From: Arthonia radiata
Taxonomy: Eukaryota; Ascomycota; Arthoniomycetes; Arthoniales; Arthoniaceae
Direction: 5' to 3'
Assembly (NCBI GenBank): GCA_002989075.1
Contig: PSQN01000015.1
Location: 620,001 to 684,000, forward strand
DNA: 64,000 nucleotides
Shown: positions 10,991-64,000 of the stretch, in pieces
Position numbering within the stretch: position 1 is the first letter of the stretch
How the letters are laid out: each line of letters starts with the position of its first letter
Translations under genes and position numbers: made by a program
Notes under the pieces: generated by a model
What the model saw: only the letters and a program-made list of their open reading frames with translations
Told to the model about the DNA's origin: nothing
The model's database searches: none

Positions 10991-11025
10991 GACCCAACCT
11001 AGAAATCCTTTCTAACAACTAAGAA

Positions 11026-11172: not shown

Positions 11173-11199
11173 TATTAGGACTAGAATATTAATCGGTCG

Positions 11200-11870
11200 T
11201 AGCAGCAATAATATCCTAATTTACTACCTAGTGTGCCTCGCTAGTACCTAGATTACCCTCGAACGAACCAGCTCACTACGTTATAGGACTACCGCCTAAC
11301 ACCGGATAGGGGTCACTCCGAAAGTCAACGGATAACCCGCTCGGACATTTAAATATATTACTACTAGCTATCAACGCAGCAAACTCCTTTTGCTCCAACA
11401 ACTTATTCCGAGCTAACTTTGCTGCTACTCGCGCACAAGTCTTCTTAACCTTCTCTTTTAACTTCTAAACCTTAAATCGGTTACGCTACACAGCCGCAAC
11501 CAACGCTGCTACCTAAGCCTTTAACGCACATAATTAGCTCTTTGTACGCTAAAGGGCAGCCGACTAAGAAGAGTATTGAGAATAAACCGAACGCACTGCA
11601 ATTAAGTTAGTTTCAGTTACTACAAGGGGACACTAACAAGGCATACTATCTGCTATTAATACCCATAAATTATAACTCTTTCTATTTTGAGTACATACCG
11701 AATACGTCGCCTTTCTAGACTAAACTACACATCTTTTCCTAGTCGACACACATCTAGAACAAGAAGGCATTTTAGTACCGTAGGCTTTAATTAACAGGTA
11801 TTAGCTGTACTTTTTGTTAGGACCCGCAGCAACAAACTTTATACGAGGCATAGCGACTTATAGATCAGTT
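11200..11870 (-). pseudogene. Gypsy-A1 antisense coding region (Cys cluster plus coiled coil)
   Basis: Read on the minus strand, this interval between the chromodomain and the 3' LTR shows coding character opposite to gag-pol. A segment around 11690-11810 has the spacing CX2CX6C after a MPSC start-like motif, then a second Cys-containing half with an SRK core. Further along (about 11400-11580) comes a Lys/Leu/Ala-rich stretch with heptad-like spacing that suggests a coiled coil. The same order and several identical residues appear in Gypsy-B on its opposite strand. Zn2Cys6-like is an inference from the Cys spacing only. The copy is not intact. Confidence 0.6.
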
Positions 11871-11940: not shown

Positions 11941-11957
11941 TAGAAGAGGAGGGATTG
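11941..11957 (+). other. Gypsy-A1 polypurine tract
   Basis: A purine-rich run (AGAAGAGGAGGGA) lies immediately upstream of the 3' LTR. This is the expected primer site for plus-strand DNA synthesis. The matching site in Gypsy-B lies at 59358-59374 on the minus strand. Confidence 0.8.
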
Positions 11958-12429: not shown

Positions 12430-12434
12430 CTAAG

Positions 12435-38070: not shown

Positions 38071-38089
38071 AATATTAAAATTAGAATAT

Positions 38090-38780
38090 TAATTGGTTAT
38101 AACAATACTAGCGTTCTAATTTACTATCTAGTACGCTTCGTCGGTATCTAAGTTACCTTTAAACAAACCAGCCTACTATGTTATAGGTCTACTATCTAAC
38201 TTCGAGTATATATTACCTTAAAAGTTAATAAATAACCTGCTTAAATATTTGAATATATTGCTACTAGCTATCGACGCGGCTAACTTCTTCTACTTTAATA
38301 ACTTATTTCGAGCTAGCTTAGCTACCGCTCATATACAAGTTTTCTTAACTGTCTTTTTTAACTTCCGAACCTCTAACTAATCGCGCTATACAGCCGCAAT
38401 TAAAGCTGCTACTTATACCTTTAACGCATGTAATTAGCGTTTCATACGCTAAAGAGCAGCCGACTAAAAGGAGTATTAAAAATAAACCGATCGCGCTATA
38501 ACTTAGTTAATTCTAAGCATTATAGTACTATAACAATAAAAGTATACTATCTGCTAACGATATCTATAAATTATAACTCTTCTTATTTTGAGTATATACT
38601 AAATACATCGCCTTTCTAGACTTAATTATATACCTTTTTTTAGTCGACATATATTTAAAATAAAGAGGCATTTTAATACCGTAAGCTTCGATTAGCAGGT
38701 ATTAACTATACTTTTTGTTAAGACTCGTAATAACGGACTTTATACGAGGTATAGCGATTTACAAAATAGTTATAAGAGAA
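38090..38780 (-). pseudogene. Gypsy-A3 antisense coding region, remnant
   Basis: On the minus strand the same order as in Gypsy-A1 and Gypsy-B is seen: an MP-started segment with a KKRY...KSRKA core around 38590-38680, then a Lys/Ala-rich helical stretch. The Cys cluster is largely erased here. The shared residues and position confirm homology with the other two copies. It is not intact. Confidence 0.5.
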
Positions 38781-38857: not shown

Positions 38858-39328
38858 TATTATAAGTACTAGTTCTAAATAGCTTAATGTACTTTTAAGC
38901 GTTAACTATTGTTAGTTATCTTAGTCCTACTAGTATTATTTCCGACTAAGTCTATAAATCCGCTACAGATATTATTAAATAAAACGGCTATAAAAACCTA
39001 TATTCCTTATAAACCTAATATAAGTATTATTAAGATTAATAAATATAAAGAAACTTCTTTATATATCTTAAACTATATAGCTAAACTAATAGCTAATTTT
39101 AAAATAAACTTTAGTTTATTAACATAATATTTAAATATAAGTTTTTTAACTATATTTAAATAACGTACTTTACTTTCTATTTACTTAATTAAGCTCCTCT
39201 TACTTTCTATAATTTATCTCGTCTCTTCTGTCTTTTAGTCTTTAGTATACAAGATACCTACTACTAAGATCGATAAGTATACAAGGTAAGTAAGCTTTAG
39301 TTCGGTTCTTCTAGCGACCGGCGTTACA
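38858..39328 (+). repeat. Gypsy-A3 3' LTR
   Basis: 471 bp, starting TATTATAAG and ending GCGTTACA; the last 30 bases keep the original CG-rich form. The flank is CTTCT, with no partner at the truncated 5' end. Confidence 0.92.
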
Positions 39329-42030: not shown

Positions 42031-43316
42031 AAAGCTATATCTTATATCTAGACTAATTCTCTCTAGATATATTAGAAGCTTAGTTGTAAAGTATAGAAGT
42101 ATTAGAATTATTACTTATTAAACACTAATAAGTTATAATATCTTAAGTACTATAGTTAGTCTAGGTAAATTAGCCTTTATATGGTAAATTCTGGCTAGAA
42201 GTAGGAAAAGTAAAGTAATAGAAGTTAGATATATAGAAGCTAAGAAATATTATTACCTAAGCGGCTAGAGTAGGTTCTTGTATTAGTAGACGTTACTATA
42301 AGATACTACTAGTCTAATTAGAACGGTACTAAGCTATAATATAGCTGATAGGGAGTATCTATAGATAATTATTAGCTAGAGAATATAGAGAAATATAATA
42401 GTATAATAGTTATCTATATATTACTATATCTATCTACTATATCTATAAGAACTACCTCTACTCTAGTATATTACTATATCTATTTACTATATATAAAAGA
42501 ACTACCTTTATCTCTATATATACTTTATAAGCTCTCTACGTCTAATATAATTTATATTATCTAAGCTATAACTCTTTCTTTATAACTATTAATCTACTTT
42601 GTTTAGCCTATAACTTGCTATATAATAGTAGTATAAAATTAAATTTAGCTATACTAAGAAATTAGCTTTACTTACTAATAATATTAATTTATAAGCTTAA
42701 GATTCTAGTAGAATATAGCTAAGGAGGTCTTTAATTTTTATATAAACTTTAGTTAAAATTATACTCTATATATTAATATATTAAAAGTATAAGATAGTTA
42801 CTTATTTATAACTTTTTAAATTCTAATATTTAAATAGAAGTATAGTAAAGGCTAAATAGAGTTAGAATAACCTACTTAGTATACTAAAGTATTTAAGTAA
42901 ATAAATAAGGTACTATAATAATATAGCTAGAAAATTTTTAAAGAAGAAGTATTAGTTAGTATAACTATCTATCTAGATAAGCTATTAGATATAAAAGTAC
43001 TTCTTATAAGATAGTATATCTAGTAAAGCGGTATGCTAGGTTAGATAGTAAGCTAATTATAATAATAAGAATAAGATATTACTTAGTTTAGTAGTATATT
43101 TAGTATAATATTAAAAAGTAGGGTGTATTTAAAAGGTATATCTATATGTTCTTACTAGTAAAAGAACGTAGATATCTATACGCTCTTAGTAATTATATAG
43201 TTGGATTCTAAGGTATAGTTCTTATATAGTAGAAACTATATAGTAGTTACTATGCTTAGATAAGTAATTACAATACTTATTATTAACCTTTCTAGTATAG
43301 GTAATGTTTAATATTA

Positions 43317-43344
43317 AGTAGACGCTTTAGTATAGGCGTCTACT
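43317..43344. repeat. Perfect 9-bp inverted repeat, 10-nt loop
   Basis: AGTAGACGC at 43317-43325 and its exact complement GCGTCTACT at 43336-43344. Too isolated to call a terminator. Confidence 0.5.
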
Positions 43345-45393
43345 ATACTTAGCTTTATTGCTATAGTATCTTAGACGTAGTAGCTTACTTTATATAGCGG
43401 GCGGCTAATAGATAATCTATAGCAATTATAGTGCGGCTCTTTATTATATAAGATAGCGTATCTAATTAGATATACTTTCTATATAATAATCGCTCTAGAG
43501 TGGATATAAGGTTATACTCTACTAAGTATAAGCTTAGTAACGTACTAAGATATACTTTTAATCTTAAGTTTTAGAGAGTTCTATCTTATATTAAAGTATC
43601 TATTTTATAAGAAAGCTACTTTATAATATTTATAGTATTAGCTGCTAATAATATATAATAGATAGTTATATATAACTATATATTATAACTAACAATAATA
43701 TTTATAACTATTCTTTAGTTTAAAGTTAATTTGTAGAAGCTAGTTATAAAATAACTTACTTCTATTATAGAGTTATACTTTCTTAGAGACCCTCTAAGGT
43801 AGGTAAGAGAAAAAAGATAGATAACTAGAGTACTCTAAGAAAGTTATTAAAGAAGAAGCTACTACTAGAGTAGTAAAGTATACTTATATATAATAGAATT
43901 CTACTAGTAATAGTACTAATAGAATAGTTATATAGAATAGTAATTTACTATTCTATATATAATTTTCTCTATTTTCTTCTTATAAAGGCTTTATAATAAG
44001 TAGAAGAAGAGTATACTACTATATAGTACTAAGTACCTATAAATTTTTATTTATATCTATACTATATAGAGTAACTTTATAGATATATAGTCTAAACCTA
44101 AATTTATTAATATAGGTAATATATAGATTAAATCTAATTAGATTAAATTATAGATATAAAGATCTTAATCTATTTTAAAATTCTTAAAAGTAGAGAAGCT
44201 AACCTAAATTTATTCTAAAGCGCAACTTTATTTAAACCTATTAGATATATCTATCTCTATAGAGAACTATACTAATAATATAAAATCTATTTAAGTTCTA
44301 TAATGTTAACCAAAAAAGAAAGATCTATCTTTATACTATTCTTTATATCTATTAAGCTTAAAATCTAACTTCTCTTAGCTATAATTATATCTATTTTATA
44401 GATAGCTAGAGCTCTATAGTCTTATAATTCTATAGCTCTATAGCTCTATAGTACTTAGTACTAAGGTAACTTAATATTACAACCTTATTCTATTATAGTC
44501 TAGAAGAGCTTAAACTTAATATAATCTATTGTTTTATAAAAAGTACTTTTAGAGCTATAGTATATAGCTTCTATAGTAAAATTTAGTCTTACTTAAGCTT
44601 TAGTATTATAATAATACAGTAGAATTATATATAGTAGCTCTATAGCTATATAACTCTACTACATATATAGATTATATTAAGATAAAACTTATTTAGAAAA
44701 TTCTATATATATATAGTAGCTATGTTAATATTATTAGTAGATATTCTAGAGAGTATTAGAAGTTAGCTATAGGTTCTAGAGATATTTTAAGATTACTAGA
44801 TAGCTAGTTCTTCTTTTAGCTAGAGTCTAGTAACTCTAGCTTAGCTTTCTAGAATAGTTTTATATCTATTTTTTATACTAGTATTATATTACTTATATTA
44901 TATAGAATAGATTATATAACTACTACTAAAGGCAACTAAAATATATATAATTTTAAATACTTACTTAAATCTTTACTTATCTAAATACTAAGAGAGAGAT
45001 ATATCTAATCTTTTAACTTAGATTATAGATATAAGTTATAGCTATAGCTAGATTATATATCTAGTAATATATCTAATTATACTATTAAAATATTTATTTT
45101 ACTAAATATATAGGTTATATATAAAATAACTTTTAAAGCTAGGTAATCTACTATTACTAAATCTCTATAATCTAGATTTTTACTATTTAAATACTTATAA
45201 TCTTTTTAACACTATCTTAGAAGTATACTCTTACTCTTTCTATACTTTTAAAAGGGCCTCTCAGGTATAGATAAATATAAAGAAGATATAAAGTATTAAT
45301 ATTTAATACTACTAAGTATATAGTACTACTAGATATATAAATAATACTAGAAGTTCTTCTAAAGACTATATATATAAAGGTTTTTTATTACTA

Positions 45394-45696
45394 ATATCTA
45401 TAATAAAAACATAATAACCTTTTCTATATAGCTAGGACCAGAACATTCTCTAAAGGGGTAATCGCTAGAGACAGTATCTTAAAGAATTTAAGGTCCTCTA
45501 AAGATAACTTAGCTTACAGAGTAAACTCTATAAATTAAAGAATATTAGTTTATATTAAATTTAAATCCGTATCTTTTATAATTAGTATAATAAAGATATA
45601 CTTAATTTTATAGGTAGAAAAGTCTTAGAACGAGTTTATATCCTATTAAAAGTTAGAAAATAATTACTAAGCCTATAGAGCTACGTAGAGCTAAGA
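45394..45696 (+). repeat. Dispersed ~300-bp repeat, copy 1
   Basis: It starts around ATCTATAATAAAAACATAAT and ends near a GAGCTACGTAGAGCTAAG segment. It matches 48852-49149 along its length and 49150-49370 over its middle, with differences mostly transitions. No coding content is seen, so it may be the end of a larger unidentified element. Confidence 0.75.
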
Positions 45697-45748
45697 CTTA
45701 CCCATATATAATATTCTAGTATCCATAGAGCCGTTCTATAACTAAAGA

Positions 45749-46090
45749 TACGTATAATTTTATTGTAATAAGTATAAAAGAATGTTCTTAAAAAGAGCTC
45801 TATAATACGGTAGAAATTATATATTTACAACGTTTTTAAGCTACAGGGACATACAACAAAATAGATACAATAGATATAAGAAGCGCTAAGTACGTAAGAC
45901 TGTAGGGCTATAGGGCTGCGTAGGGCTAGGTTTCTCCTATAAGCGATATAAACATTCTACAAAGCAATACTATACGTAATTAGGGTTTGTTGTCTATTAT
46001 AGTTAGTATAAAAGATAGCCCTTAAAAAGGGCTCTATAACGTAATAAATATTATAAATTTGTAACGTTGTTTAAGCGGTATAGGCCCTAA
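45749..46090 (+). repeat. Less-eroded block with two ~90-bp direct repeat copies and a palindrome
   Basis: Two related segments (about 45749-45847 and 45970-46088) share GTATAAAAGA, then a TTAAAAAG-type core, CTCTATAA, and an ACAACG or GTAACG tail, offset by about 240 bases. The second contains a 7-bp-arm palindrome AGCCCTT-AAA-AAGGGCT at 46017-46033. Between them TAGGGCT occurs three times at 45903-45928. The block keeps CA and TG dinucleotides and is GC-richer than its surroundings. Function unknown. Confidence 0.55.
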
Positions 46091-46622
46091 ACTATTAAAA
46101 TGCAGCATACAACGGGTACTAAGCTTTAAGTTATATAATAGAAGAGATAATTTAACGGGCCTAACTTTATATAGTATAATAGAATATCTAAAATATATAG
46201 AATTTATCCTTCTAAGTTAAAGAGTCTTCTTATAGTAATATAGCTTTCTATATTAATAGTTAGTATTACTAGTAATAGTTAAAGATATATATAGTTATAT
46301 ACTATCTATTAATCTATAGATATGCTAGAATTAAATATATATCTAGTAGTACTATATACTTAATAGTACTAAATATTAGAGAAAGAAGAGAGCTTTATAA
46401 AGTTCTACTCTATATATTAAGCTTAGTAAGATAGTTACTAGCTTAATAAGGTAAGAGCTAGCTATATATACTAGCTCTAAAGAAAGTCTTATATATACTA
46501 CTATGTCTAGATTAGAAAGCTCTACTTATCAAGAATTACTAGATATTAATTAATAAGTAAGCTAATATATTTTATAAAGCTTTAATATTACTTACTATAT
46601 CTTTTATTTAGGTAGTATATAG

Positions 46623-46645
46623 CTATATATATATATATATATATT
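46623..46645. repeat. (TA)n microsatellite
   Basis: An uninterrupted TA run of about 11 units in a generally TA-rich context. Confidence 0.7.
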
Positions 46646-46989
46646 TATAGTCTATACTTTATAATTCATATTATTATATTTATTATATTTAAATTCTATC
46701 TATAGTAGAAGTATAAAGACTTTTCTATTTATACTTTAAATTTTACTATAGCCTATACTAGTTTAAAGTATATAAAAAGCTCTATAATTTATTAGAGAGA
46801 TATATATAGAAAGAAGAGATAGTAAAAAGAAGGTAAAAAGCTATAGTATATATAAATAAATACTATAAGATAACTCTTTTTTTACTATCTAAGCTTTGAT
46901 AAATTTAATATATAATTAGAATATAGTAGTACTTAGCTAGATATAAGAAATATTATTAGTATATTGAATTAGATCTAGTAATCTAAATT

Positions 46990-47075
46990 ATTTTAAATTA
47001 ATCTAGTTTAGTCTAGTTCAGTTTAAATTAAATATAGGTCTAATTTATTAGTTCAGTTTAGTTTAGATTAGAGTT
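46990..47075. repeat. Possible inverted partner of the 22685-22800 island
   Basis: The segment with AGTTCAGTTTAAATTAAATA matches the reverse complement of the island at 22685-22800 in its core (18 of 23 positions in the clearest stretch, differences mostly transitions). If real, it could mark the other end of an old DNA transposon, but the 24-kb distance, reduced to about 11 kb without the Copia-A3 and Gypsy-A3 insertions, is large for a hAT element. Confidence 0.2.
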
Positions 47076-47993
47076 AATCTAAGTTATAACTTCTAAAAAT
47101 AGAATGATTTTTATTATATTTAGATACTATATTAGACGTTATACTAGTATTAAAGGTTCTAGCACTTAATATCTAAAATTTATATACTAGAATAAATTTA
47201 AAGATTAAAATCTAAGCTTTATATAAGTATCTTATATTAATTCTAGTATTCTTAGCTAATATATACTACTAAAATATAACTTAGAAAAAAGTTAAGTTTA
47301 TTTAGATGATTAAGATAATTTTAGCTATATTATAATGTATCTAGTAGAATAAAATTAACTTAGCTTATCTATAGAAGATTAAGTTTAGTAATTAGTAGGA
47401 GTATTCTCCATAGTATTTAATACTAGACTAGTAGATCTACATCTAGTTTTATTAGATCCAGTCTTACTAGATCTAGATTTACTAGATATATTAGAATATC
47501 TAGTGTTAGTAGCTAGGTTATTTTACTACTATTATTATCTAGATTAGAACTAGAAACTAATATAGTTAATTAATCTTCTAGACTTTATTCTTCTAGACCC
47601 TCTTCTATATTATCTTCTAGGTTAGAAGTAGGCTTAAGAAGCCTAGTTTTTTAGATATAGTATAATACTTATACTATTCTTAGCTATTTAGTTTCTCTTT
47701 TTAGTAACTATATCTAAGCCTTAAAAGAATTCAGATTCTATAGAAGGTAAAGTAGCTAGTATAGCTAGATATATTAATACTAAGTAGGCTAGAATAGGAT
47801 ATTTTATTTTATTTAGTTACTAGTATTCTAGAGGATTGCTCTATATTATAATTAGTATTAGATCTAGATTAGATCTAGATTATATTAAATAAGATTACTA
47901 ATTTTGGTATCTTAGAGCTTTAAAAATAATTAATATATTTAATTTTATTATTGTTCTCTTTATTACTATCATTACTATTATTACTACTGATAT

Positions 47994-48089
47994 TATCTAG
48001 ATAAGATCTAGTAATACTAGTAGTATCTAGATAAGATCTAGTAATACTAGTAGTATCTAGATAAGATCTAGTAATACTAGTAGTATCTA
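47994..48089. repeat. 30-bp tandem repeat, about 3.2 identical copies
   Basis: The 30-base unit begins ATAAGATCTAGTAATACTAG and ends TAGTATCTAG. Units at 48001-48030 and 48031-48060 are identical and the third differs only at its last base. A partial unit precedes them. Identity this high in decayed DNA implies recent amplification. The unit contains a near-palindrome, CTAGTAATACTAG. Confidence 0.9.
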
Positions 48090-48851
48090 CTATCTAGGTA
48101 TTCTATTAGATCTATTAATATAATTACTAGATTCAACTTGAAAGTTCTTTATACTAGATAAATAATTAGGTCTTATATTTAAATTAGATATATCTAGTAA
48201 CTTATATATTATATTTAGTAATAAACTTATTTTTAATTATTTTAATCTTATTATCTTTATAGTCTAGATAATTAAATACATTTAATTTATATCTAGGATC
48301 TAGTATCCTTATAAATAGTAGTTTTTCTTTCTTTAAATCAATATTCTAATACTTTATTAGCTTTTTAAGGCTAGACTCTAGTACTATTTTAATAATAAAG
48401 CTGTTATTATTATTTTTAGTATCTCTTAGTTCTTTTTTAAATATAATCTAGTATAGTAGACTATAAAATGAGGTAGAATAGCTACTACCTCATAGCTTTA
48501 TTATTACTCTTTTAAATATCTTTAGTATTTCTACTATATTGGCTAGAATATTAAATTCTATAGGGTACTAATATAGTAAGTTTATAAGCTAAAATCCTTA
48601 GTAATTAGGTTTCTTATAGAACTTTTTAAATCAATAAAGAACACTAGTATCTTAATATTTAAATTCTATCTAGTTTTATTATCTAGATATAAGATAGACT
48701 TACTTATATCTAGATTTTTAGCTCATTTTTCTAAGTTTTATTTTAGTTAGAAACTATGTTAATTTTTATTAATTAATTTCTAAACTTTAGCTAGTAGTAG
48801 CTTATAATTAGTAGTAGAAGTAACTTCTAAATTTATATTAGTTTAGTTTAT

Positions 48852-49149
48852 AATCTATAATAAAAATATAATAACCTTTTCTATATAGCTAGAGCTAAAT
48901 TATTCTTTAAAGGGGTAATTGCTGGAGGTAATATCTTAAAGATTTTAAGGTTTTCTAAAGATAGCTCGGCTCGTAGAGCAAATTCTATAAATTAAAGAAT
49001 GTTAGTTTATATAAAAATTAAATATATATCTTTTATAATTAATATAATAAAGATATACTTAATTTTATAGATACATTATTTTAAAAATAAGTTTAAATTC
49101 TATTAAAAGCTAAAAAATAATTGCTAAGCTAATAGAGCTACGTAAAACT
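48852..49149 (+). repeat. Dispersed ~300-bp repeat, copy 2
   Basis: It matches 45394-45696 from its first ATCTATAATAAAAA bases to the GAGCTACGTA segment. It is followed directly by copy 3, giving a near-tandem pair. Confidence 0.75.
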
Positions 49150-49370
49150 AGCTAGAGCTAAAATATTCTTTAAAGAGATAATTACTACTAAATAGTTTAG
49201 TAATTCTATATAGTTTTTCCTATATTATATATAAACGTAGGCAAACCTTATAAATTAAAGAGTATTAGCTTATGTATAATTTAAATATATATCTTTTATA
49301 TTTATTACAATAAAGATATACTTAATTTTATAGTTATATTGCTTTCAAAACAAGTTTTTCTATCAATATA
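49150..49370 (+). repeat. Dispersed ~300-bp repeat, copy 3, partial
   Basis: It starts at a shared GCTAGAGCTAAA and shares ATTCTTTAAAG, the CTTATAAATTAAAGA segment and the AAAGATATACTTAATTTTAT segment with copies 1 and 2, but has a divergent middle and no clear 3' part. Confidence 0.65.
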
Positions 49371-52300
49371 TTTTTATTATTATAGTAATAGACAGCTAAA
49401 GCTAAGTTACATATATATAGTCTATATATCTAACTTTATACTATAATTTCTTCTCTACTATCGATAGTATAATTTCTAAAATAATTATCTACTATATACC
49501 CTTTTTAAGTTAATACTCTTATATGCGCCTATAAAGCCTATTATTAAGGAAATAGACTAAGTTTAAGTCTTTTAGGCTTACTACTACTAATCTATTTACT
49601 ACTTCTACTAAAAGTATACTATTATTAAGTCTATATTTATTACTACTACTACTTAGCTAGCTATATATCTTCTACTTCTTTAAGTATTATATATAGCCGC
49701 CGGTACTTAGCTCTAGCCTGTTATTCAGTCTAAACTTATTTCTTTGCTTATTTAAGGTTATACTATATATATAAAGGCGTATTATATTTAAAGAGAGCTT
49801 AGTAAGTAAATTACTAACTTAACGCTATATACCCTCTTCTTTCTTATAAGATACTAGTAATACTAAAACTATATTAGAAAATTAAGAAAAGTAAGTTCTA
49901 TAACTAGAGAGAGCTAGCTAAGCTACTAATAATATTAAAAATAAATTTAACTATATAAATAGTAAAAATAGAATACTAAACATTAATAATATTTATTTTT
50001 CTATTCTAAGATAAGCTATAATAGCTTTAGTAAGATTATTTATATATTTAAACGCTATATAACTATATATAGTAGTATATTTATTATACTAATACTCTAA
50101 ATAAATAAATTATCTTTATTTATAAGTATACTATACGTAGCCTGCTATATAGTAATAGTTATTATATTCTTTATTATATAAGAATCTCCTATTAATTTTA
50201 TAAAGTATTCTACTAGCTAAATAAGATAAGCAATAAAAAATTTAATAAATATAGAAATCCTACTTACGCTAATTTTAAAAATATCTATTATAATAAAGGT
50301 GTAGTTCTATATTCTTCTTTTAGCTAATTATACTTTAAGCCTTTATATAGTCTTTTATTAAAAACTTAAGTATAGTATAGTACAATGGTATATATAGCTT
50401 AATTCTATAAATTTCTTTAATTAATTTATTACTAGAATACAAGCTTTTTCTTTATATTTATAAAATTTAAAGAAAATTAGCGTGATAGTAACGTTAATTT
50501 CTTTATCTTTTAAATTTAAGGTAAATTTTATTATTATATTAGATTATTACTTCTACTCTTTAATAGTAATTTAGTATTTCTTTAACTTTATTTATATAAT
50601 AGCCTTATAAAGTAAGAGAAGCTATAAATAAAGGTCTTTGACTATTATAATCTATAAATATTATAATAAATAGCGGTACTACTAGTAAAGTACTATTTTT
50701 ACGCTTATACGCCCTATAGCTATAGTAAATAGATTTAGTAAGATAAGACAATAGCTTTATAACTAAAGCTATATAATCTAGATTTTAAAGATTAATACTA
50801 CTATAATAAGCCTATTAATGAGTCTATTACTATAATTATTAATTTTAATGCTATTAAGTATAGCGCTATATTATATAAGATAATTATTTAATATTAAATG
50901 GATAGATATTAGTATATTAAGAAGTTTTATCTTAACTATCTTACTTTATAGTACCTTAGAGGCCCTCTTAAAGGTTAAGATACTATCTAAATAAGGTTTT
51001 AGTATAGTTTTAATAAAGTTTTAGGTTTTTAAACTATCTTAATATAGTATATATATAGTATTAAAACCTTATTAATAGTAATTTATATTTTTAAATTATT
51101 ATATCTATAGTTATAAGAGTAATTAGCTTTTTAGTATATAGTAGTAGTATTGTATTAGCTTTAATATAAATATATATAAACGTTATAATAAAAGAATATA
51201 TTTTAATTTTTCTAGCCGCTAATTATCTAGTATAAGTACTAGTCTCTATTAATATATTAGTAGAAAAATTAGCTATAACTACTATCTTAGACTTTTTCTT
51301 AAAGTAGAAAGTAGCTATACGCTTAGCGTATATCCTTGCTAAAAGTCTTTACTTTTAGCTCTATAGCGCGCTAAAAAGCAAAACGTATATATTATCTAAT
51401 AGCATACGATAGTTATAATATAGTCTTAGCCGTAAGTTATAAATAAGTCTTAAAGATTTTTTTCTTTGAAGCTTAACGCGTCTATCTAATCATTAAAATA
51501 CCTATCTTTACCGCCCTACGCCCGCTATCGGTTGCTTATATACTCTAGATAAAGAGCTAAATACTGCTTATCTATATAGTTTATAGCTCGGTCGATAGTA
51601 TATATATAAATATAGGGTTAGTAGTAAACACTCTACAGCAGTTTAAATACGCTTTTATAATAACTTATATAGTATATATATAAATTTTTAATTCTCCTAT
51701 ATATATATTTATAGACAATACTTAGTCTTATTACTATTTATTAATACTTTTCTTATTAACGCTCTTTTATATTTTATAATTCTATTAAGACTTATTAGAG
51801 TTATCTATCTTAGTAGCTTAACTACTAGCGTAAGTAGCTTACTCTTTTACTATATTATAAGGCTTATAAGCGCTATGCTTATAGCTCTTACCGCAGCAAC
51901 CTCTCTATCTCTTTTTTTATAGCTATACTACTTCTTATAGCTTTTAAAGTTACTTCTCTATTTATACTTTAATCTCTTATAGTATATAAAGAATATTTAT
52001 ATTCTTAATAAGCTTTATAGTAGGTAGACGAGAGTTACTACATAGAGTATTACTATTGCTTTATTATAGAAGAGAAGTAGATAGTAGCGCGTTTAATTTA
52101 GATTGTATATTGCTTAATAACTAAATTGCGTTTATATTGATATTATTTATATAGGCTTTAACCTTACTAATAATATTTAATATATAGTTTACGCCTTCGC
52201 TATTATAGCTAACTACTAGTTAGTTAAGTATACTTATAATATTAAGTATTTTAGTACTATTATATTTAAGGTCTTATTTAGATATTTATCCTTATTAATA

Positions 52301-55300
52301 TATAATTGCCTATTTAAGCTTGGTCTTCTATTATAAAGTTAGCGCTATTTATAAATATATTTATAGCTTATATACTTAGCTATAAAGAGTAAAGAAGTAT
52401 TATTTTAATATAAGAGGCGTCTTATCTTTAGCTATAGGTACAAGAGGTATAGCTAGTACAATAGTAACCTAAATAGTAATTTTACTAGCTATTAGCGCGT
52501 CTAGTATTATACCGTAGCTTTTTAAAGTTAGCTTACATCGCTTTAAAATAAGAAGTTTTTAAACGTATAAAAGTAGTTAGCCTTTATATTTATTAATAAG
52601 CGCTTATAACCTTAATATAAGGTCTTTAAGTATATAAGCATTAATAAGCTTAAATATACTAGTAATATTTATTATAGCTGTATACTTATATATAGCTTAA
52701 GAAGGTAGAGCGAAAAGGTATTATTAAAAGTATTAAGAAGAAAAGCTTTTAATAAGATTAGTATAGTAAGTAGTTACTACGTAGTAATTAAGAAAGGTTA
52801 GTATAAATATATATATATTATTTACTATATACTATTATATACTTTTAAAGATATAAATTGTTATACTATATATTAATAATATATATAATACTTAGTTCTA
52901 CTTACTACTACTTATAACTCTATACTTACTATTCTACTACTAAAAATATATTTATAAACTATAGGCCTTTTATAATTATATACTATATAATATATAAAGA
53001 GATATATCTATAAAGATTGTACTAAGTATAAAATACAATATAGTATAGCTAATTAAATAAAAAAGAAGTATAAAAAGAATTTTAAGTAAGATAATATACT
53101 TAAAAGATAATAGCATTATAATAGCAAAGTCTAGTTTAATAGAGCCTAGTTTAATAAAGAAGCTCTACTTATTAAGTATCTCTTACTCTAATAAAGTAAT
53201 AATAACGCTATTATTCTTATTATTACTAATAATAGCTAATAGGATAAGTAACTTACTATAGTAATTATACTTATAGATACTTACACTAGAACTATAAATA
53301 CCTTTATTAATAGAAAAATTTAAAGCGCTACCGTTACAATATAAGTCGTCGGTATTAGTAGCAGGCATATTTAGAAACTTGTTATTAAGATTTATATTAG
53401 ATTTATATTAGAATTATAGTTAACGTTAATTATAATATAACGGTTATAGTAATAACCTAGCTCAACGTCCTTATATAATAGAAAGTCTTTAATATTAAGT
53501 ATCTTAAGCTTTTTTTTATTATATATAAAATCGAAGAACGTAAGTAAACAATTATAGTTATACTTTATAAGTCTAAAATAGTTTTTATTACGCTTCTAAA
53601 GAAATATAAGTTAGTAATAGATTACAAGTATAATAAAGATATCTAACTTAATTAATAATAGCTATAAGTATATTTATAGCTAACTTATAGCGTAAGAATA
53701 AGATTTCTTAAGATTTAATTTTATTAAAATTAACAACCTTAACTATAAACTTAAAGATATTAGAAAGCTAAGTATAGTTAAAGTCTATATTAATTCGCTA
53801 CTTAAGAAGCTTAAAGTTAGTATATTTTATAACTATATTATCTATATAAAACTTAATATATATATTAACCTAGCTAGTAAAACCTTTAATTAAGCAATTT
53901 TTTTAATTTTTATATAGTATACGTACTTTATATACTATTTTTTAATATTAAGGGGTTATAGCGTAAACCCTTAAATATAGTCTTAATAGAAGTATAAACT
54001 TACTAATTATCAAGACTAAAAAGAAATTAATAATGTACTAGTATAGCTATAAACTTAACTACTTCTTTTTTATCTATATATACTAAATAAAATACGTTCT
54101 TATAGATAAACTATATATCTTTACTATAAAACTTATATAAAGAGAAAATAAAATAATATTCTTACTTATGCTTTTTACTTATCTTAGACTATAGATTTTA
54201 ATTACTATTTTATTCTTTAACTTACTCTTCTTTAATATATTCTTCTTTAACTTACTTGTCTTTAACTTAATTTTAAGTTTAGTAATCTATAGAATCTATT
54301 GTCTGTTATTACTAGTAAACAGCACCGCTTAATATTAGTATTAGCGTTAGTATATTAGCACTTATATTACTATTATAAGGTCTTTTATATATATTTCTCT
54401 TCTAATACTAAACTATAGTTATAACGTTTATAATTAGTTTTATAGTTACCTTGAATAAACGCTATACTTAGCTTATATATTATCTTTTTTAAGCTTTTAA
54501 GATTAATACTACTATTTTTACTTCTAAGACTAAGAGTTAGACTAGCTAAGTGTTTTACTTATCTTAAATATACAATATATAATTTATAATACTAGCTATT
54601 ATAGAGACTAGTTTATAGAAGGCTAGAATTTTACTTAGATAATTAACTAGCTATAAGCTTTAAACTAAGCTTTTATCGAAAAGAAGAACTATTTATTAAC
54701 TTAAGGCTTTTAATCCTTATTAACCTATATTTATAAATATATTTATAGCTTACTATACCTTTAGCAAAGAAGATATATAGTAGTTATCTTTCTTAATTAA
54801 ATTGTTATTAAGCTTATTATTAATATATTAGAGACGCTATAAAGATATATAGCTAAAGCTAGTAGTATTGTTACTAAGCTTATCTTAAAAGCTACGTAAA
54901 ATGTTACTAGCCTTAAACAACTTTATAAAGATACATAGTATAGTAGCTATATCTTTAAGTTATCTATAAGTTTAGAATACATTATACTAATTATTCTAGT
55001 TAAACTGTCTTACTATTATTTTAGTCTGGTACCAGCTTTATACGTAAAGTAGTAGGAAGGAGAGTATAAAAACAAAAGTAAAGTATATTTAAGAGATAAA
55101 TAGTAAGATAGCTACTATAAGAGGTATTACTTAATATACTATATATACTTAGCTAAATGTAGTAAAGATAACTAAACTATAGCGATTGTATTCTATATAT
55201 TCTTTATTTACTTATTAATATTATATTATATCCTTACGCTATTATAATAGTAGTACCTATAAAACGTTTATAACGCTTACTACTACTTCTCTAAAATACT

Positions 55301-57340: not shown

Positions 57341-57589
57341 CTGTCGCTATGCTTACTCTAAAGACGCTTCTAAGGGTTGAAAGCTATACAAAAAGGTAAG
57401 TAAGTTTATTAATACCGACCTTAATAAGGACAATACCTTTAAGAAGAGGAGACGTTGTAGTAGCAATACTAGCACAATTACTACGTTTATTGATACTGTC
57501 GACGATATAGTACCGTCTACTGGACCAGGTAAGACACGTAATATGTTCACTAGACAGAATTTTGCTATATACCTTACTACTAGACTTAC

Positions 57590-58905
57590 TACTCGATTAG
57601 ATACAGATTAGCTTACAGACTCTAGGGCATCTAACTATATATACAATAATCTAGGTGCGTTTACCGACCTAGAGCCTTGCTAGGTTGTAGTCTATACTAT
57701 TAAAGATACCGCGAATATAATTAAGCGAGGTATAGTCTATATTAAGACGTAGAAGACTAATAGGGATATTGTCGACTTAAAGCTTATAAACGTACTTTAT
57801 CTCTCTAGTTTGTTCGTTAATTTGCTATTAAGCTATAAATTATCTAAGCATAGCTTTAGCGTGCATACAGAAGAAAATAAGATTGTACGAACGAATAGCA
57901 ACGATAAGCTTGTAGAACTAATTAATACTGGTCGCTACTAGGTCTTAGACCTTATTGACGGTAGTACGGCTTTAAGCGTATCTTCTAAGACGTAGTACGT
58001 ACGCTTTAGGTATATATCCTACAATTACTTGTAGAAGACCGTTAAGCAGGTTACTAGCTTAAATAACAGTATTCTTAAGCTTAATTATAACTACAGCGCT
58101 TATATACAAGGTAAGGCTACTCACTATAACAATAAGGTATCTTAAGATAGATACAATAAGTTCTTAGGTCTTCTATACCTTAACCTTGTTGGTTCTATTA
58201 CGCCGAAGGCGATTGCCGACGACAGTAATACTACCTTAAATATAACAGACGACTGTTGCCGTGCGCAGTACTTTTAAAAGCTTGACAGTAAAATAGGTAA
58301 TACTGTCTTATCTGCGTTCAAGACGTTTAAGATGCTTTATAATAAGTAGTTAAATTAGAAGATTAAGGGCATTAAAATTAATAACGGTACTAAGTTTAGT
58401 TTGCTTTAGAAGTATTGCTTAAGTAAGGATATTTGGGTATATTACTTATCTCTCTATACGCTAGGTAAATACGGAGTCGCGGAGCGAACGAACGGAATTA
58501 TTTATAATATAGCTTGTTTAATGCTTATCGGTAGTAAAGTGCCGCAGAAGTATTAGAATAAAGCCTACAGTACAGCTATCTATATCTTTAACCGTACGGC
58601 TACGGTAGCGCTTAATGGCAAGACGCTATATTAAGCCGTTAATAAGGCTTTATAGAAGAAGCGTGTACCGCTAGATGTCTCTTATTTACGAGCTTTTAGT
58701 TGTACGGTATATATTACTGTCCCTGTTGCTCGCCGTATCCCTAAGAAGTTTAACTCGAGGGCCTATATTAGTAAGATAGTAAGGTACGCTACTAATAGTA
58801 GTAGAACTACTTATTGTATACTCGTTTCAACGTATAGAGGGGTAATAGAGACCTCTTATGTTTAATTCGATAAATTCCGCTTTGAAACGGTTACGGATAT
58901 CCTTA
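57590..58905 (+). pseudogene. Copia-B protease and integrase
   Basis: The protease segment begins near 57612 with a SRASNYIYNN core (the Copia DSGAS neighbourhood) and continues to an LLLSYKLSKHSF segment near 57826-57860. The integrase core lies about 58330-58700, with INNGTKFS, GVAERTNGIIYN, TAIYIFNRTATVALNGKT and LRAFSCTVY-type motifs in the order known for Copia integrases. It then runs to a KFNSRAYISK segment and stops at the Gypsy-B insertion. It is broken many times. Confidence 0.83.
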
Positions 58906-58907
58906 AG

Positions 58908-59357
58908 TATAACGCCGGTTGCTGGGAAAACCGAACTAAGGCTTACTTGCCTTGTGTGCTTATCGACCTTGGTGGTGGGTGTCTTGTGTACTAGAGACTA
59001 AAAGGTAGGAGAGGCGAGATAGATTATAGAAAGTAAGAGGGGCTTAACTAAAGTAGACAGAAGATAAAGCACGTTACTTAAATAAAGTTAAGGAACTTAT
59101 ATTTAAATATTAAGTTAATAGACTAAAGTCTATTCTAAGGTCGGTTATTAGTTTAGCTATATAGTTTAAGGTATAAAGGTATGTTTTCTTATATCTAACG
59201 GTTCTAATACTTCCTTTGTCGCGTAGTTAAAATTCTATTGCGATATAGCGACGTTGCCGATATCGCTATATTAGAGGCGTCGGGTATACTGTATAATGCT
59301 CTAATAAGGCTAGCTGCGCTTAGCCCTATACTAGCCTAATATAGTAAGATCGTAACA
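58908..59357 (-). repeat. Gypsy-B 3' LTR with a different U3 half
   Basis: About 450 bp; in plus orientation TATAACGCCGG to ATCGTAACA. The first ~275 bases match the Gypsy-A LTR closely. The remaining ~170, the U3 end in element orientation, do not. On the minus strand the LTR is preceded by a polypurine tract, which fixes its start. The U3 part contains an inverted GCGATAT/ATATCGC pair near 59238-59265. Confidence 0.8.
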
Positions 59358-59374
59358 CAAGGTCCCCTCTTTAA
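59358..59374 (-). other. Gypsy-B polypurine tract
   Basis: On the minus strand AAAGAGGGGACC lies just upstream of the 3' LTR start. Confidence 0.75.
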
Positions 59375-59439
59375 GGCTAGTCGTCCTTAACAGCCCTAAA
59401 GATATTAAAACCTTGTTATTTTTCTGTAGTAGATCTAAT

Positions 59440-60115
59440 TCTGTAAGTTATTATGCTTAAAGTTAAGAAAGTCCCTAACGCTAACAAAGCGCTCGAGATC
59501 AATACCGTTCTTACCGAAGTCTGTGGTCGGGAGATGCCTTCGTGTTTCTATTGCTCTTACCTAGGTAAGAAGTATATACTAAAGTCTAGAAAGATATTGT
59601 ATTTTATATATATTCGCGATAAGAAGTTGTGCGACGTTTGTTTGTCGTTAAAGAACGGTTAGTCCTTACTTTACGTTTATTTTCTATATTATTTTAACTT
59701 ATTTATTTTAGCTTAGAGTATCTGTTCTTAATACTTATAAATATTGAATACTCTTTAGGAGCAGCGCAAGCGTTTAGCGGAAGAGAAGGAATTTGTTTGT
59801 GCGGCAAAAAGGTAGCGTGAAGCTGTTAAAGCGGCGGTTGTAGATTTAAAGAAGAAGCTCGAAAGGTTGCGCGTCTAGGTACAGAATAAAATAGATTAGA
59901 ATAATATATTGTTCGAGGAAGAATAGTTAGCGGCTATATTTAGTAGTAATATCGTAAACGTGCTGAGTAGCCTAAGTATAGATTTCTGTAACAATCTGTA
60001 CCCGGAGTTAGGTAGTAGGCTACTAATATAGTAAACTAGTTTGTTTATAGATAACCTAGGTACCAGCGAGGCGCACTAGATAGTAAATTAGGGTGTTAGT
60101 GCTGCTACAACCGAT
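59440..60115 (+). pseudogene. Gypsy-B antisense coding region (Cys cluster plus coiled coil)
   Basis: Opposite to gag-pol, a plus-strand frame at 59453-59662 (69 codons) encodes a basic protein with MPSCFYCSYLGKK followed by a second CX2C pair in KKLCDVC. Next, at about 59757-59895, comes a Lys/Glu/Leu-rich stretch (AEEKEFVCAAKR, VVDLKKKLERLRV) with coiled-coil character, then a segment containing ...AAIFSSNI that matches AALIASSNI in Gypsy-A1. The Cys spacing in the two better copies resembles a Zn2Cys6 or similar zinc cluster. Function is unknown. I have the impression that similar Cys-rich plus coiled-coil proteins recur near fungal retroelements, but cannot confirm it here. The region as a whole is not intact. 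Confidence 0.6.
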
Positions 60116-60135
60116 TAATATTCTAGTTTTAGTAT

Positions 60136-60285
60136 CGTTGAATAGTGTCTTTATAGTTAGTTAGATTTTGTTTCGGTTTCTATTGGTTTTTGTATTTAGA
60201 ATATCTTTTCTACTTTATAAGATACTGTCGTTTGCCTTGATATTGTCTATAGGCTTGAACTATTTTAACCTCGTACTCGGGTTTC
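60136..60285 (-). pseudogene. Gypsy-B chromodomain
   Basis: The minus strand reads NPEYEVKIVQAYRQY, then a KRQYLIK strand and PKQNL, the same chromodomain as in Gypsy-A1 (11026-11172). Confidence 0.82.
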
Positions 60286-60289
60286 TAAT

Positions 60290-63200
60290 TGTTAGAAAGG
60301 ATTTCTAGGTTAAGTCGTTCTGCGTCTTAGAAGTAAGCTAGTTCTAATAGCGCTACGTAGAATACAGAATATATTCTTATTGTCTTTAAGAGTTCTAGTT
60401 TAAATGTTATAGATCTTAATTGCTGTAAGATTTTAAACGGTCTTATCTTAGTATAGTCGAGTTTCTTACTTAGTCTAATAGTTTTTAAGTTTTTTATAAG
60501 CAAGTAAGCTCTTTCCCCCTCTTTTATGCTTGTATTTAGGGTAGTTCTTAATTTATTATACTATCGTCTTGTTTGTTTGTTAATAAACTTGCTATTAAAC
60601 TTTAGCTACCGGTGCAGGCTTTTTATGTTTGTAGCTATTTACGTAGCTGTCTCGTTTTTAGTAGTATTTTGAAGTTGTCTGCTCTAAAGAGGGTAATAGC
60701 TATATAAGGCGTAGAACAAAGTTATCTTAGTTATATTGTTCTTGGTATCGTTGTACGCTGCTTATGCTACCGGCAGTAATTATACCTAGTCGTTCTGCTA
60801 GTAGTTGATGTATGCTCGGAGATACTGCTCTAGTGTTTAATTCGTTCGTTCTATTTGTCTGTCTGTTTGTAGATAGAATGATATTAATATTTTTTGTTTA
60901 GTCTCTAGTTGTTGTATTAGGGATGTCTAGAACCGTAAGACAAATTTCTGGTCTCTGTCTAAGACAATTTTTTGTGGTTAACTATAGTTAGCTAAAATAA
61001 TCTGGAGGAAGGTATATACTAGTTGTTCTAAGTTGCTAGCTTCCTTGTAAGGTACAAAATACGCGTATTTTATTAGTTTGTCGTATATAACGAGGATAGC
61101 GTCGTAAGCTACTTCTATGAGTAAATCCTTAGATATTGGTAGTTTAGTTATAAAGTTTAGTAAGACCGTATGCTATAGCCTCTCGGGTGTCTCTAGTGGC
61201 TGTAGTTCACCGTATAGTGAATACCTTGCGTGCTTAGTTCTTGCGTATACGTCGCATTCTTAGATATAATTCTCGACGTGGTGCCAGATTCTTGGGATAT
61301 AGTAGCTTCTAGTAATCTTCTTTATAGTATTGTTGATGCCTTTATGTCCTTTTGTTGGGCTATTGTGGAAGTTACTAATAACGTGTCGGATTAGGTTTCT
61401 TGGAACGTAGATTTTGCCTTAAAATTCGTAGTAACCCTTGTTATTCTTAGTTAGACCTAGGTGTTGTTTCTCGTTTAATTGATAGGTCTTTAGGTCGTTT
61501 AGGATATTCTAAATTTAGTTATTCGGTTCGATAACAAACTCTGTTGTTATAGCTAGTTGATTGTATTTAATCTCGTTGTTGTGTTCTTAGAATATTGTAT
61601 GCTCGACGTGTTCCTTGTTATTAAGGTAATCGGGTCGTCGACTTAGAGCGTTCGCTCTATCGTTCTCGGAACCCTTTTTGTAGGTAATAATAAAGTTGTA
61701 TAGAGCTATAGTTTCTAACTATCTAACTTGCCTGCGGTTAAGTTTCTTTGTTGTTATAAAGTAAGTTAGGTTTTTGTAGTCTATATATATTATAATTGTA
61801 TAGTTTGCCCCTTTCAGGTAAGCTCGCTATATTTTGAATGCTGCTATAATAGCTAAAAGCTCTTTATCGTAAATATCGTAGTTTTGTTCTGTAGATAACA
61901 TTTTTCTTGAGTAGAAAGCTACCGGTCTAAGCTTTCCTTCCTTGTTGTTTTAACTTATACATACTTCAATCGTATAGTCTAACGCGTCTGTTTTAATAAT
62001 AATTGGTAGGTTAGGGTCGAATATTGCTAGTACAGGCCTAATTTTAAAAGCTTCCTTAAGCTCTTTAAATACTAATTGTTCTTTTTGCGTTTAAAAGAAT
62101 TCTATCGATTATTTCGTCTGTTAAGACAGCGGTGCTGTAATTCGGCTAAAGTTGAATATCTACTACCTATAGTAGTTAACAAAACTAAGAAACTGTTGTA
62201 ATTGTTTTATATTCTTTAGTATAGGCTAGGTTAGAACGAATTAAATCTTTAAATCTTCTATTTGAAGACCGTACTCAGTAATTATAAATCTAAGAAATTC
62301 GACGGATTGTTGGTAAAACTAGGTTTTCTCGATATTGATTTGTAAATCGGTACGCGCTAATCTTTCTAATACCTTCTTAATATATTTCTTATATTCTTCT
62401 AGTATACGGCTGTACACTAGGATATTGTCTAGATAAGTAGTTATAAATAAGTTTAGGTAATTACTGAGCGTATTGTTAATTAGTTTCTAAAATGATACTG
62501 GTACGTTTATTAGCCCGAAGGGTATAACACAGTACTTAAAAAGTCTGTATCTGGTATAGAAGGCCGTTTTCTATTCTTCGCCTTTCTTTATATAGATTAG
62601 GTTGTAGGCTCCTCGTAGGTCAAACTTAGTAAACTACTGTGCGTTATACAGTCGGTCTATAATTTTGTCGATGCGTAGTAGTAAATATTAGTTTTTAATA
62701 GTTACTCCGTTCAATTGTCTGTAGTCTACATAGAGTCGTAGTTTGCTATTCTTTTTTGGTACGAAGAGTATTAGGTATTCGGCTAGTAATTTCGATTTCT
62801 AGATAAATTCTTTCTTAAGGTTTTCGTCGAAGTAGTCGCGGAGCGCTTAATTTTCTGCTTCTAATAGAGAGTATATTAGACCGAATATTGGTGTCTTGCC
62901 TTCTTATAAAGGTATTGTGTAATCTTACGGTTTGTGTTCTAAGAGAGCTGAGTTTAGCTTAGCTTTCTCAAATAGATATTAGAATTAATCGTATTCCTCG
63001 GGTATCTTAGTAATTAACTAAGTACTTGTTATCGTATAGAATCGTTAACGTATAGTCGTCTCTTATTTATACTTGCGTGTAGTTAGCTATAGACGAGATA
63101 CTGCGTTAAACTTCTCTCGTAAAATATCTAAGTGTCGGAGTATAGTAGTACTAACCTGCGTAAGTTCCTTATCGCGCTTCTTATTCTTACTACTAAAAAT

Positions 63201-63600
63201 AGCTTGTAGGGTATTCGTTCCGCAGAACGACTCTTGTTTAGAGTACTTATACCTAGTAAAGAGGAGTTTTTTAGTTCTTTAATTTACTTTTAGGTTATAT
63301 TGTTGCAACTAAGGTATACTTAGTACAGCGTAGTACTAATTAATATCTATAATATTGTAAGTAATTTCTTCTTAATAGTTCCCGATTATTATATCTATTG
63401 GCAAAGTCTTATAGTCGACTCTTTCCTCTATCTCTTAGAATCTAGATAGTATGTAGGGTAATTTCTTCTTTTGTGTTTGTATCTGGTACTCCTCGACGTA
63501 ACGTATCGAGATAAAGTTGCCTATTGCGCTAGAATCGATTATAATTTCAATGTTTCTATAGTTTATTATTACCTAAGTGTGTAGATATGTTTTATAGGTA
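60290..63600 (-). pseudogene. Gypsy-B pol: integrase, RNase H, RT, protease
   Basis: From left to right on the minus strand: integrase about 60480-61440 with an LDRDQKFVLRF catalytic segment near 60935-60975; RNase H about 61600-62020 with [14 protein letters not shown] and DKELLAI motifs; RT about 62300-63000 with a YLDNILVYS box near 62405-62440, an FGLINV segment near 62500, and [11 protein letters not shown] near 62710-62750; and protease about 63500-63560 (IIIDSSAIGNFIS). Minor open frames on the other strand, such as 63073-63282, are shadows. It is broken many times. Confidence 0.88.
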
Positions 63601-64000
63601 GCTGAGCTCGCGCAGAGCTAGACTCTTAGAGAGTCTAACCGTTGGACGGGCCGGTACTGCTACTCTTAAAGTAGTTGGCCTAGCCTTTTTTCTATCGATC
63701 GTGTACGTTCTAGAGTATTTTAGGTACTAGAACCTATTGTCGGTTGATTTACTATAAGAATTCCTGTATAGGGTGTCCTAGTACTACTTTTATTATAACG
63801 TTTAGTTTATTGTTTACGATCCCTGCTTTAATTACGCAATTATCGCTAGTTACAACTCGTCGTATCTATAGATTATACATTGTTGGTCGAAGATATTAGT
63901 ACTAACTACGCAATTCTAGACCCTTAATAAGGTAGTCTACTAGTCGTCGTAGACGTAAGTAAATATATCCCAAAATATTGTTTATTTCTCTATTAGTGCT
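63600..64000 (-). pseudogene. Gypsy-B region between gag and protease, cut by window edge
   Basis: It corresponds to about 7310-7740 of Gypsy-A1, the long segment between the gag zinc knuckle and the protease. No named domain is visible. The element continues past 64000. Confidence 0.7.

What the first reader, a model, noticed from the sequence alone, without database searches (positions are those of the whole stretch)
59440..60115. Conserved antisense gene-like region at the 3' end of a chromovirus
In Gypsy-B (59440-60115, plus), Gypsy-A1 (11200-11870, minus) and Gypsy-A3 (38090-38780, minus) the interval between chromodomain and 3' LTR has coding character on the strand opposite to gag-pol. 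All share an MP-started Cys-cluster segment, an SRK core and a following coiled-coil-like segment ending in an AA(I/L)..SSNI motif. Conservation of amino acids and order across copies that differ mostly by transitions suggests a real antisense gene carried by the family, possibly a nucleic-acid-binding or regulatory factor under a promoter in or near the 3' LTR. Direct observation: shared motifs and orientation. Inference: the zinc cluster and any function.
Basis: partly seen in the sequence, partly recalled or inferred. Interest (0 to 1): 0.75.

Follow-up and report, generated by a model that had tools for sequence, protein, structure and literature searches.

The report
Swappable antisense gene in fungal retrotransposon
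A fungal jumping element carries, on the strand opposite to its main genes, a small intron-containing gene for a protein with a zinc-cluster-like and a coiled-coil-like part, and that gene comes with its neighbouring promoter region in at least three very different versions on an otherwise shared element.

Summary
The antisense gene is real. In Gypsy-B it spans 59453-60118 (+): exon 1 with six cysteine places spaced C-x2-C-x6-C-x8-C-x2-C-x6-C, a 54-nt intron (59658-59711), and a coiled-coil-like exon 2. The copies read are RIP-damaged. Evidence: conserved splice signals; transversions, which RIP does not make, pile up at third codon positions between divergent types; and a second chromovirus family in the same genome, without nucleotide match, has the same cysteine spacing and intron position.

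B and A1 do not differ mostly by transitions here. Between about 59190 and 60020, U3 plus antisense gene is 9-48% transversion-diverged, while pol and R/U5 beside it differ by about 1-2%. Three cassette types (A, B, C) ride on one shared backbone, and U3 type matched gene type in 99 of 99 copies that have a cassette. I read this as an element-encoded regulator travelling with its target promoter, like a phage immunity region; this function is inferred. [quoted passage not shown] The linked, spliced zinc-cluster-like cassette is a new variant.

The parts
58905..59197 (-). Gypsy-B 3' LTR, R/U5 part, shared by cassette types A, B and C (sense is the minus strand)
   Evidence: A-B transversions 0.0093 per site against 0.0064 within A and 0.0062 within B; the other LTR of the element lies outside the window at G000:C12:685747-686197
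59198..59355 (-). U3 part of the Gypsy-B 3' LTR, type-specific; holds an inverted repeat at about 59243-59271
   Evidence: divergence box starts here; LTR end from the 451-base match; dyad score mean 10.9 in 28 B copies against 6.5 +/- 1.05 in shuffles, 24 of 28 in one centre bin
59358..59375 (-). polypurine-tract-like stretch next to U3 (label recalled)
   Evidence: read from sequence; aligned in the 14 copies of three types shown
59453..59657 (+). antisense gene, exon 1; zinc-cluster-like part 59534-59656 with C-x2-C-x6-C-x8-C-x2-C-x6-C
   Evidence: length 205 in 30 of 30 B copies and 41 of 41 A copies; cysteine columns C or Y in 443 of 444 cells of 74 copies
59658..59711 (+). spliceosomal intron of the antisense gene, GTTAGT...TAG, phase 1
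   Evidence: donor GTTAGT in 30 of 30 B copies, CTAAY/TTAAY branch-like motif in 71 of 71 A and B copies, length 50-54 in B
59712..60118 (+). antisense gene, exon 2, coiled-coil-like part, LAA..SSNI motif, probable stop TAA 60116-60118
   Evidence: an exon 2 piece is modelled as one long helix
59190..60020 (.). cassette (U3 plus most of the antisense gene): box of high divergence between types
   Evidence: in 50-base bins; first seen
60105..64000 (-). 3' part of gag-pol of Gypsy-B, backbone shared by the types; first near-constant pol stop at 60105-60107
   Evidence: stop in 71 of 73 copies at this codon; tv about 1-2% A v B; chromodomain tested in A1 only
11189..11851 (-). antisense gene of Gypsy-A1 (type A): exon 1 11851-11647, intron 11646-11596, exon 2 11595-11189
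38089..38752 (-). antisense gene of Gypsy-A3 (type A), ends approximate

Best explanation
The region is an antisense accessory gene of a fungal chromovirus. It is read from a promoter at or near the 3' LTR towards pol, is spliced once, and encodes about 203 residues: a six-cysteine (Zn2Cys6-like) module, then a helical coiled-coil-like part. Shown here by sequence: the gene, the intron signals, purifying selection on the antisense frame, and three old cassette types (U3 plus gene) on one shared backbone. Inferred: the protein dimerises through the coil, binds its own type of U3 through the cysteine cluster and regulates LTR transcription. Repression that limits copies of the same type but not of other types is my first choice, because that would favour keeping several specificities. 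Gene and target promoter are then exchanged as one block, as in the immunity regions of lambda-like phages.
For: Gene: transversions at codon positions 1,2,3 in the zinc block are 0.233/0.075/0.320 (A-B), 0.336/0.147/0.415 (A-C), 0.192/0.124/0.248 (B-C), and the SSNI block shows the same order in 3 of 3; p(3>2) 0.0001-0.049 by within-codon permutation. Six cysteine columns are C or its RIP product Y in 443 of 444 cells of types A-C and 60 of 60 cells in ten family D copies. Intron: same position and phase in A, B, C and D. Independent family D: no blastn match (E up to 1e-3) of L119 to the A, B or C cassettes, yet the same 41-codon zinc block, cysteine spacing and intron place. Cassette: box of divergence 59190-60020 with flat flanks; pol A-B 0.0193 is no higher than within-A 0.0209; U3 type equals gene type in 99 of 99. 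Possible target: B-type U3 holds a strong dyad.
Against: No transcript, protein or binding data exist here. Pfam Zn_clus does not reach its cut-off. The structure model of exon 1 failed (pLDDT 45). No homologue was found in the protein database (how many fungi it holds is unknown to me). Types A and C have no dyad above shuffles, so a common operator logic is not shown. U3 and gene sit side by side at the RNA 3' end, so linkage alone does not prove functional coupling. B lacks the TATAAG-like box seen before the ATG in A and C. Indel evidence for the intron comes from type B only: in type A, intron and exon 2 each depart from the usual length in 3 of 41 copies.
Confidence: 0.55

Rival explanations
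1. Antisense accessory gene acting elsewhere in the life cycle (nuclear entry, chromatin targeting, helping integration), with the U3 linkage a by-product: R is the site of first strand transfer, so U3 and the next segment are inherited together, and heterologous cassettes cannot recombine internally.
For: Left box edge lies inside the LTR, where U3 would meet R; flanks do not follow cassette type. The plant counterpart GENE23 of Grande is nuclear (PMC7264820).
Against: Does not by itself explain why three old types persist while pol is homogeneous; zinc-cluster-like module plus coil resembles DNA-binding regulators (inference).
Confidence: 0.28
2. The antisense RNA, not the protein, is the active product (dsRNA or silencing control); coding capacity is secondary.
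For: Antisense transcripts of LTR elements can act through dsRNA (proposed in PMC7264820).
Against: Third-position bias, conserved intron place and cysteines point to selection on the protein.
Confidence: 0.08
3. Chance: RIP of a GC-rich non-coding stretch leaves gene-like motifs; similarity is nucleotide identity only.
For: Within one type, copies differ mostly by transitions, which say nothing about selection.
Against: Types A, B, C and family D are far apart in transversions and still keep the frame, cysteine places and intron place.
Confidence: 0.02
4. Captured host gene kept without function.
For: An intron within a retrotransposon suggests entry at DNA level or in antisense (inference).
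Against: Present in 99 of 100 copies with flanks examined, related gene in a second family, third-position bias between types.
Confidence: 0.07

Closest known systems
brtn of Boty-like chromoviruses, Botrytis cinerea (Zhao et al. 2011, Virology 417:248; not read; known here from passages in PMC8365987, PMC4227169, PMC5987419 and parts 1 and 2 of 3 of PMC7264820)
   Same: fungal chromodomain element; extra gene antisense to gag-pol, between pol and 3' LTR
Plant antisense additional ORFs: Grande gene23, RIRE2, Retand TRP28 (PMC7264820, parts 1 and 2 of 3; PMC11963269, passages)
   Same: antisense gene between pol and 3' LTR, thought to be nuclear or DNA-binding, function unknown
   Different: other protein domains (TRP28 etc.); Retand regions are longer (2,933-6,566 bp); no sequence comparison was made
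Tnt1 superfamily U3 subfamilies (PMC1838419, passages)
   Same: few discrete U3 versions on a shared coding backbone, modular evolution
   Different: modules described in the passages are U3 only; here a gene travels with U3
Immunity regions of lambda-like phages (recalled)
   Same: regulator gene and its operators exchanged as one block within homologous flanks
   Different: prokaryotic DNA phages; here an RNA-templated element with an antisense gene; binding untested
HBZ of HTLV-1 (named with nuclear localisation in passages of PMC11963269; the rest recalled)
   Same: antisense, nuclear; read from the 3' LTR side, spliced, coiled-coil (recalled)
   Different: bZIP, not a cysteine cluster; no type cassettes (recalled)

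Membership tests
Antisense additional ORF of LTR retrotransposons (aORF-3R class) | lies between pol and 3' LTR, antisense to gag-pol | tested here: met
   LTR 58905-59355, gene 59453-60118 on +, pol on -
Antisense additional ORF of LTR retrotransposons (aORF-3R class) | present in most copies of the family | tested here: met
   99 of 100 copies with flanks; 60 of these were picked by similarity to the gene region, 40 by the pol end (39 of 40 have it)
Antisense additional ORF of LTR retrotransposons (aORF-3R class) | coding sequence conserved | tested here: met
Antisense additional ORF of LTR retrotransposons (aORF-3R class) | antisense transcript | not testable with these tools
   no RNA data
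BRTN protein family | sequence homology to BRTN | not testable with these tools
   BRTN sequence not held; protein searches gave no hit
Fungal Zn2Cys6 domain (PF00172) | six cysteines with spacing C-x2-C-x6-C-x(5-12)-C-x2-C-x(6-8)-C (pattern recalled) | tested here: met
   C or RIP product Y in 443 of 444 cells and 60 of 60; all six as C in 2 of 39 A loci, 0 of 29 B loci, 0 of 3 C loci
Fungal Zn2Cys6 domain (PF00172) | Pfam gathering score | tested here: not met
   best 17.1 bits against 21; 5 of 12 members match at E up to 1, best E 0.0072; the copies are RIP-damaged
Fungal Zn2Cys6 domain (PF00172) | fold | tested here: inconclusive
   AlphaFold mean pLDDT 45
Chromovirus (Gypsy with chromodomain) | chromodomain at the end of pol | tested here: met
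   PF00385 E 1.2e-7 in A1 pol end
Immunity-type regulator cassette | regulator gene and adjacent control region co-segregate as discrete types | tested here: met
   99 of 99 concordant
Immunity-type regulator cassette | product binds its own control region specifically | not testable with these tools
   needs a binding assay

The most novel reading that the evidence does not exclude
LTR retrotransposons with immunity types: an antisense-encoded zinc-cluster regulator and its cognate U3 form an exchangeable specificity cassette, so resident copies repress newcomers of the same type only, and several ancient types are kept by balancing selection on a shared, recombining backbone.
Probability: 0.3. 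Interest if true: 0.88.

Novelty: new variant of a known kind. Interest (0 to 1): 0.62.

Why it matters
What antisense genes of LTR retrotransposons do is an open question (stated in the parts of PMC7264820 and passages of PMC11963269 that I saw). Here the gene comes in discrete types that travelled with the matching U3 in every copy that had a cassette, which gives a direct, testable prediction: type-specific binding and regulation of the element's own promoter. If true, transposons of eukaryotes would have evolved self-recognition types comparable to phage immunity. The antisense intron is also a clean marker of a separately transcribed antisense mRNA, since the genomic RNA is the other strand.

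Tried and rejected
Tried without result: protein database searches with an alignment of six copies (7996 candidates scored, none at E up to 0.01) and with the zinc part alone; PDB by sequence gave only glutaredoxin matches, best E 0.033, judged chance; Pfam on the raw B exon 1 gave nothing; the structure model of exon 1 was too poor for a fold search. Scripts that had to be redone: many loci not yet oriented; redone; inverted-repeat routine returned zeros; redone; U3 not tied to the adjacent LTR; redone. Literature: none of the titles and abstract starts listed describes a zinc-cluster antisense gene of a fungal element (two searches gave no paper) or repressor-type immunity of LTR elements; the library lacks most subscription papers, including Zhao 2011. 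Rejected: the idea that B and A differ by RIP only; the idea that the SSNI block owes its constraint to pol, because the first near-constant pol stop lies at 60105-60107, outside that block. Uncertain: the translation start in type A, where the upstream ATG frame has a stop at codon 17 in nearly all copies printed, so the start may be the inner ATG. The organism was not identified. No clean target-site duplication was seen for B.

Full report
Setting. The window is G000:C12:620001-684000, part of a 33.5 Mb genome in 16 contigs. It is RIP-like: TpA/ApT is 1.67 for the window and 1.81 for the B gene. The organism was not identified. Gypsy-B runs on the minus strand: pol from the right edge down to about 60105, then the interval in question, then the 3' LTR at 58905 to about 59355; the other LTR lies at C12:685747-686197, outside the window, so the element is about 7.3 kb. 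The end of pol in A1 holds a chromodomain (PF00385, E 1.2e-7).

The shared motifs are there in B, A1 and A3. Each of the three queries has 40 matches in the genome, which is the cap (overlap between the A1 and A3 lists not checked). One point is wrong: B and A1 differ by 165 transitions and 152 transversions in 659 sites, so not mostly by transitions; A1 v A3 does (152 and 22 in 671).

Anatomy. In B the gene has exon 1 59453-59657, intron 59658-59711, exon 2 59712-60118. Exon 1 holds C-x2-C-x6-C-x8-C-x2-C-x6-C. In 74 copies of types A (41), B (30) and C (3), 443 of 444 cysteine cells are C or Y, and Y is what RIP makes of TGT or TGC; the one other is H. Most copies have lost some: all six are C in 2 of 39 A loci, 0 of 29 B loci and 0 of 3 C loci. 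The in-frame stops in 71 copies are TAG 404, TAA 215, TGA 12; in the gene frame there are on average 10.3 (A) and 6.9 (B) stops per copy, fewer than the mean of any of the other five frames, the nearest being 12.6 and 8.3. Three of the 71 translations (L024, L032, L052) show a frame shift in exon 2. At the gene end the codon at 60116-60118 is a stop in 62 of 63 copies and in L115-L117; four earlier columns are also mostly stops but read as sense codons in some copies, so I take the last as the true stop. The first near-constant pol stop lies at 60105-60107 (71 of 73 copies), so the two genes meet tail to tail.

Intron. The donor is GTTAGT in 30 of 30 B copies; in A it starts with GT in 37 of 41 and with AT in 4. 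A CTAAY or TTAAY motif lies near the 3' end in 71 of 71, and the end is TAG or CAG in 71 of 71. Exon 1 is 205 nt in 71 of 71. In B the intron takes four lengths (50, 51, 52, 54) while exon 2 (measured to 60079) departs in 1 of 30; in A, intron and exon 2 each depart in 3 of 41, so the indel contrast rests on B. Type C has GTTAGT...CTAAC...TAG at the same place and phase in 3 of 3. An intron on this strand is not lost by retrotransposition, because the copied RNA is the other strand (established knowledge of the cycle; inference for this element).

Selection. RIP makes transitions (established knowledge), so I counted transversions between types, averaged over all pairs of unmodified copies, in two ungapped blocks of 41 codons (41 A, 30 B and 3 C copies, none dropped; the loci fetched later were not added). 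Position 3 exceeds position 1 and position 1 exceeds position 2 in 6 of 6 comparisons; p(3>2) by permuting positions inside codons is 0.0004, 0.0011, 0.0489 (zinc block A-B, A-C, B-C) and 0.0013, 0.0001, 0.0097 (SSNI block). The three comparisons share data. The gene frame has the best BLOSUM score of six frames in 6 of 6, narrowly for B-C; by plain identity it ties with one opposite-strand frame in 2 of 6.

A second family. Three (L115, L116, L117) carry type B or A. L119 belongs to another family with no blastn match to the A, B or C cassettes at E up to 1e-3; in L118 I recognised no such gene. The L119 gene region has 14 matched rows in the genome. Ten further copies show a 41-codon block with the same six cysteine places (60 of 60 cells C or Y), a GT donor at the same codon and phase (10 of 10), and a long charged exon 2. 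Within this family, eight main copies v L126 and v L127, and these two v each other, show position 3 above position 2 in 6 of 6 comparisons (p 0.0004 to 0.17). Family D v A, B, C in the zinc block: p(3>2) 0.014, 0.093, 0.026. The direct tblastn match of type A to L119 is not significant (E 0.14); homology rests on spacing, intron place and position in the element.

Cassettes. Along B v A1 and in 22 rows in 50-base bins, between-type transversion rates are below 0.03 up to about 59155, lie between 0.09 and 0.48 from about 59205 to 60004, and are below 0.02 from 60055 to about 60550; at 60555-60700 they are 0.02-0.08, where within-type rates are raised too. Within-type rates in the box are at most 0.05. 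In the last 1001 bases of pol the A-B mean is 0.0193, against 0.0209 within A and 0.0157 within B; with C 0.0205-0.0219, against 0.0080 within C (3 copies). In R/U5, A-B is 0.0093. So pol hardly follows the cassette type. Pol-end searches (40 hits each, of which I fetched 20 and 20, nearly all of them places whose type was not yet known) revealed type C in L074, L075 and L077. At least 18 places in the genome carry type C gene sequence. Matching U3 and gene separately in 100 copies, U3 taken within 330 bases of the gene start: B-B 52, A-A 44, C-C 3, none 1 (L084), so 99 of 99 concordant; the C reference is L075 itself. A first pass that took the best U3 anywhere in the locus gave two mismatches, L009 and L032; the adjacent U3 was of the matching type.

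Control region. B-type U3 has a dyad with arms up to 16 bp, in 24 of 28 copies at one place (mean score 10.9, shuffled 6.5 +/- 1.05). Types A (24 copies) and C (2 copies) do not exceed shuffles. A1 has a direct repeat of 12 bases spaced 55 nt; over 24 A copies the direct-repeat score is 9.5 v 7.9 +/- 1.4 in shuffles, a weak excess. A TATAAG-like box lies before the ATG in the A and C copies aligned but not in B. Thus target sites are plausible for B, weak for A, unseen for C.

Structure. Exon 2 pieces of five unmodified copies (three A, two C) gave one long helix (residues 2-69, mean pLDDT 72), fitting a coiled coil but not proving one. The exon 1 model failed (pLDDT 45). Pfam Zn_clus is below its threshold.

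Mechanism. Shown: gene, intron signals, constraint, type linkage. Inferred: antisense promoter near the 3' LTR; dimer; binding to U3; regulation. Linkage may follow from position: minus-strand DNA synthesis jumps at R, so U3 and the next segment come from one RNA, and heterologous cassettes can only recombine in the shared flanks. What this does not explain is why old types persist while pol is homogeneous; type-specific self-regulation would.

Comparison. [quoted passage not shown] PMC11963269, passages). Discrete U3 versions on a common backbone are known in Tnt1 (PMC1838419, passages). In the listings I saw no description of the two joined, nor of a zinc-cluster gene of this kind; the library is open-access only. 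I rate it a new variant of a known kind.

Noticed in passing
35088-35554: A solo LTR-like piece in inverted orientation interrupts the A3 element (its two halves match A1 6186-8656 and 8645-12431).
   Followed up: partly
57500-58900: Plus-strand stretch directly outside the B 3' LTR reads like a damaged Copia-type integrase region (by eye, recalled motif; not searched).
   Followed up: no
39000-55000: Very AT-rich stretch (GC about 0.20-0.26 per kb) with a repeat pair at 45396 and 48853.
   Followed up: no
window 11851-11647 and other type A copies: Type A exon 1 has a stop at codon 17 in nearly all copies printed, while the rest of the exon is open in several; the start of type A may be the inner ATG.
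   Followed up: partly
elsewhere in G000: RIP damage is uneven: some copies of the family are less marked than those in the window.
   Followed up: no
L126, L127: Diverged members of the second family (72% and 67% identity to L119), suggesting that family too has old types.
   Followed up: partly
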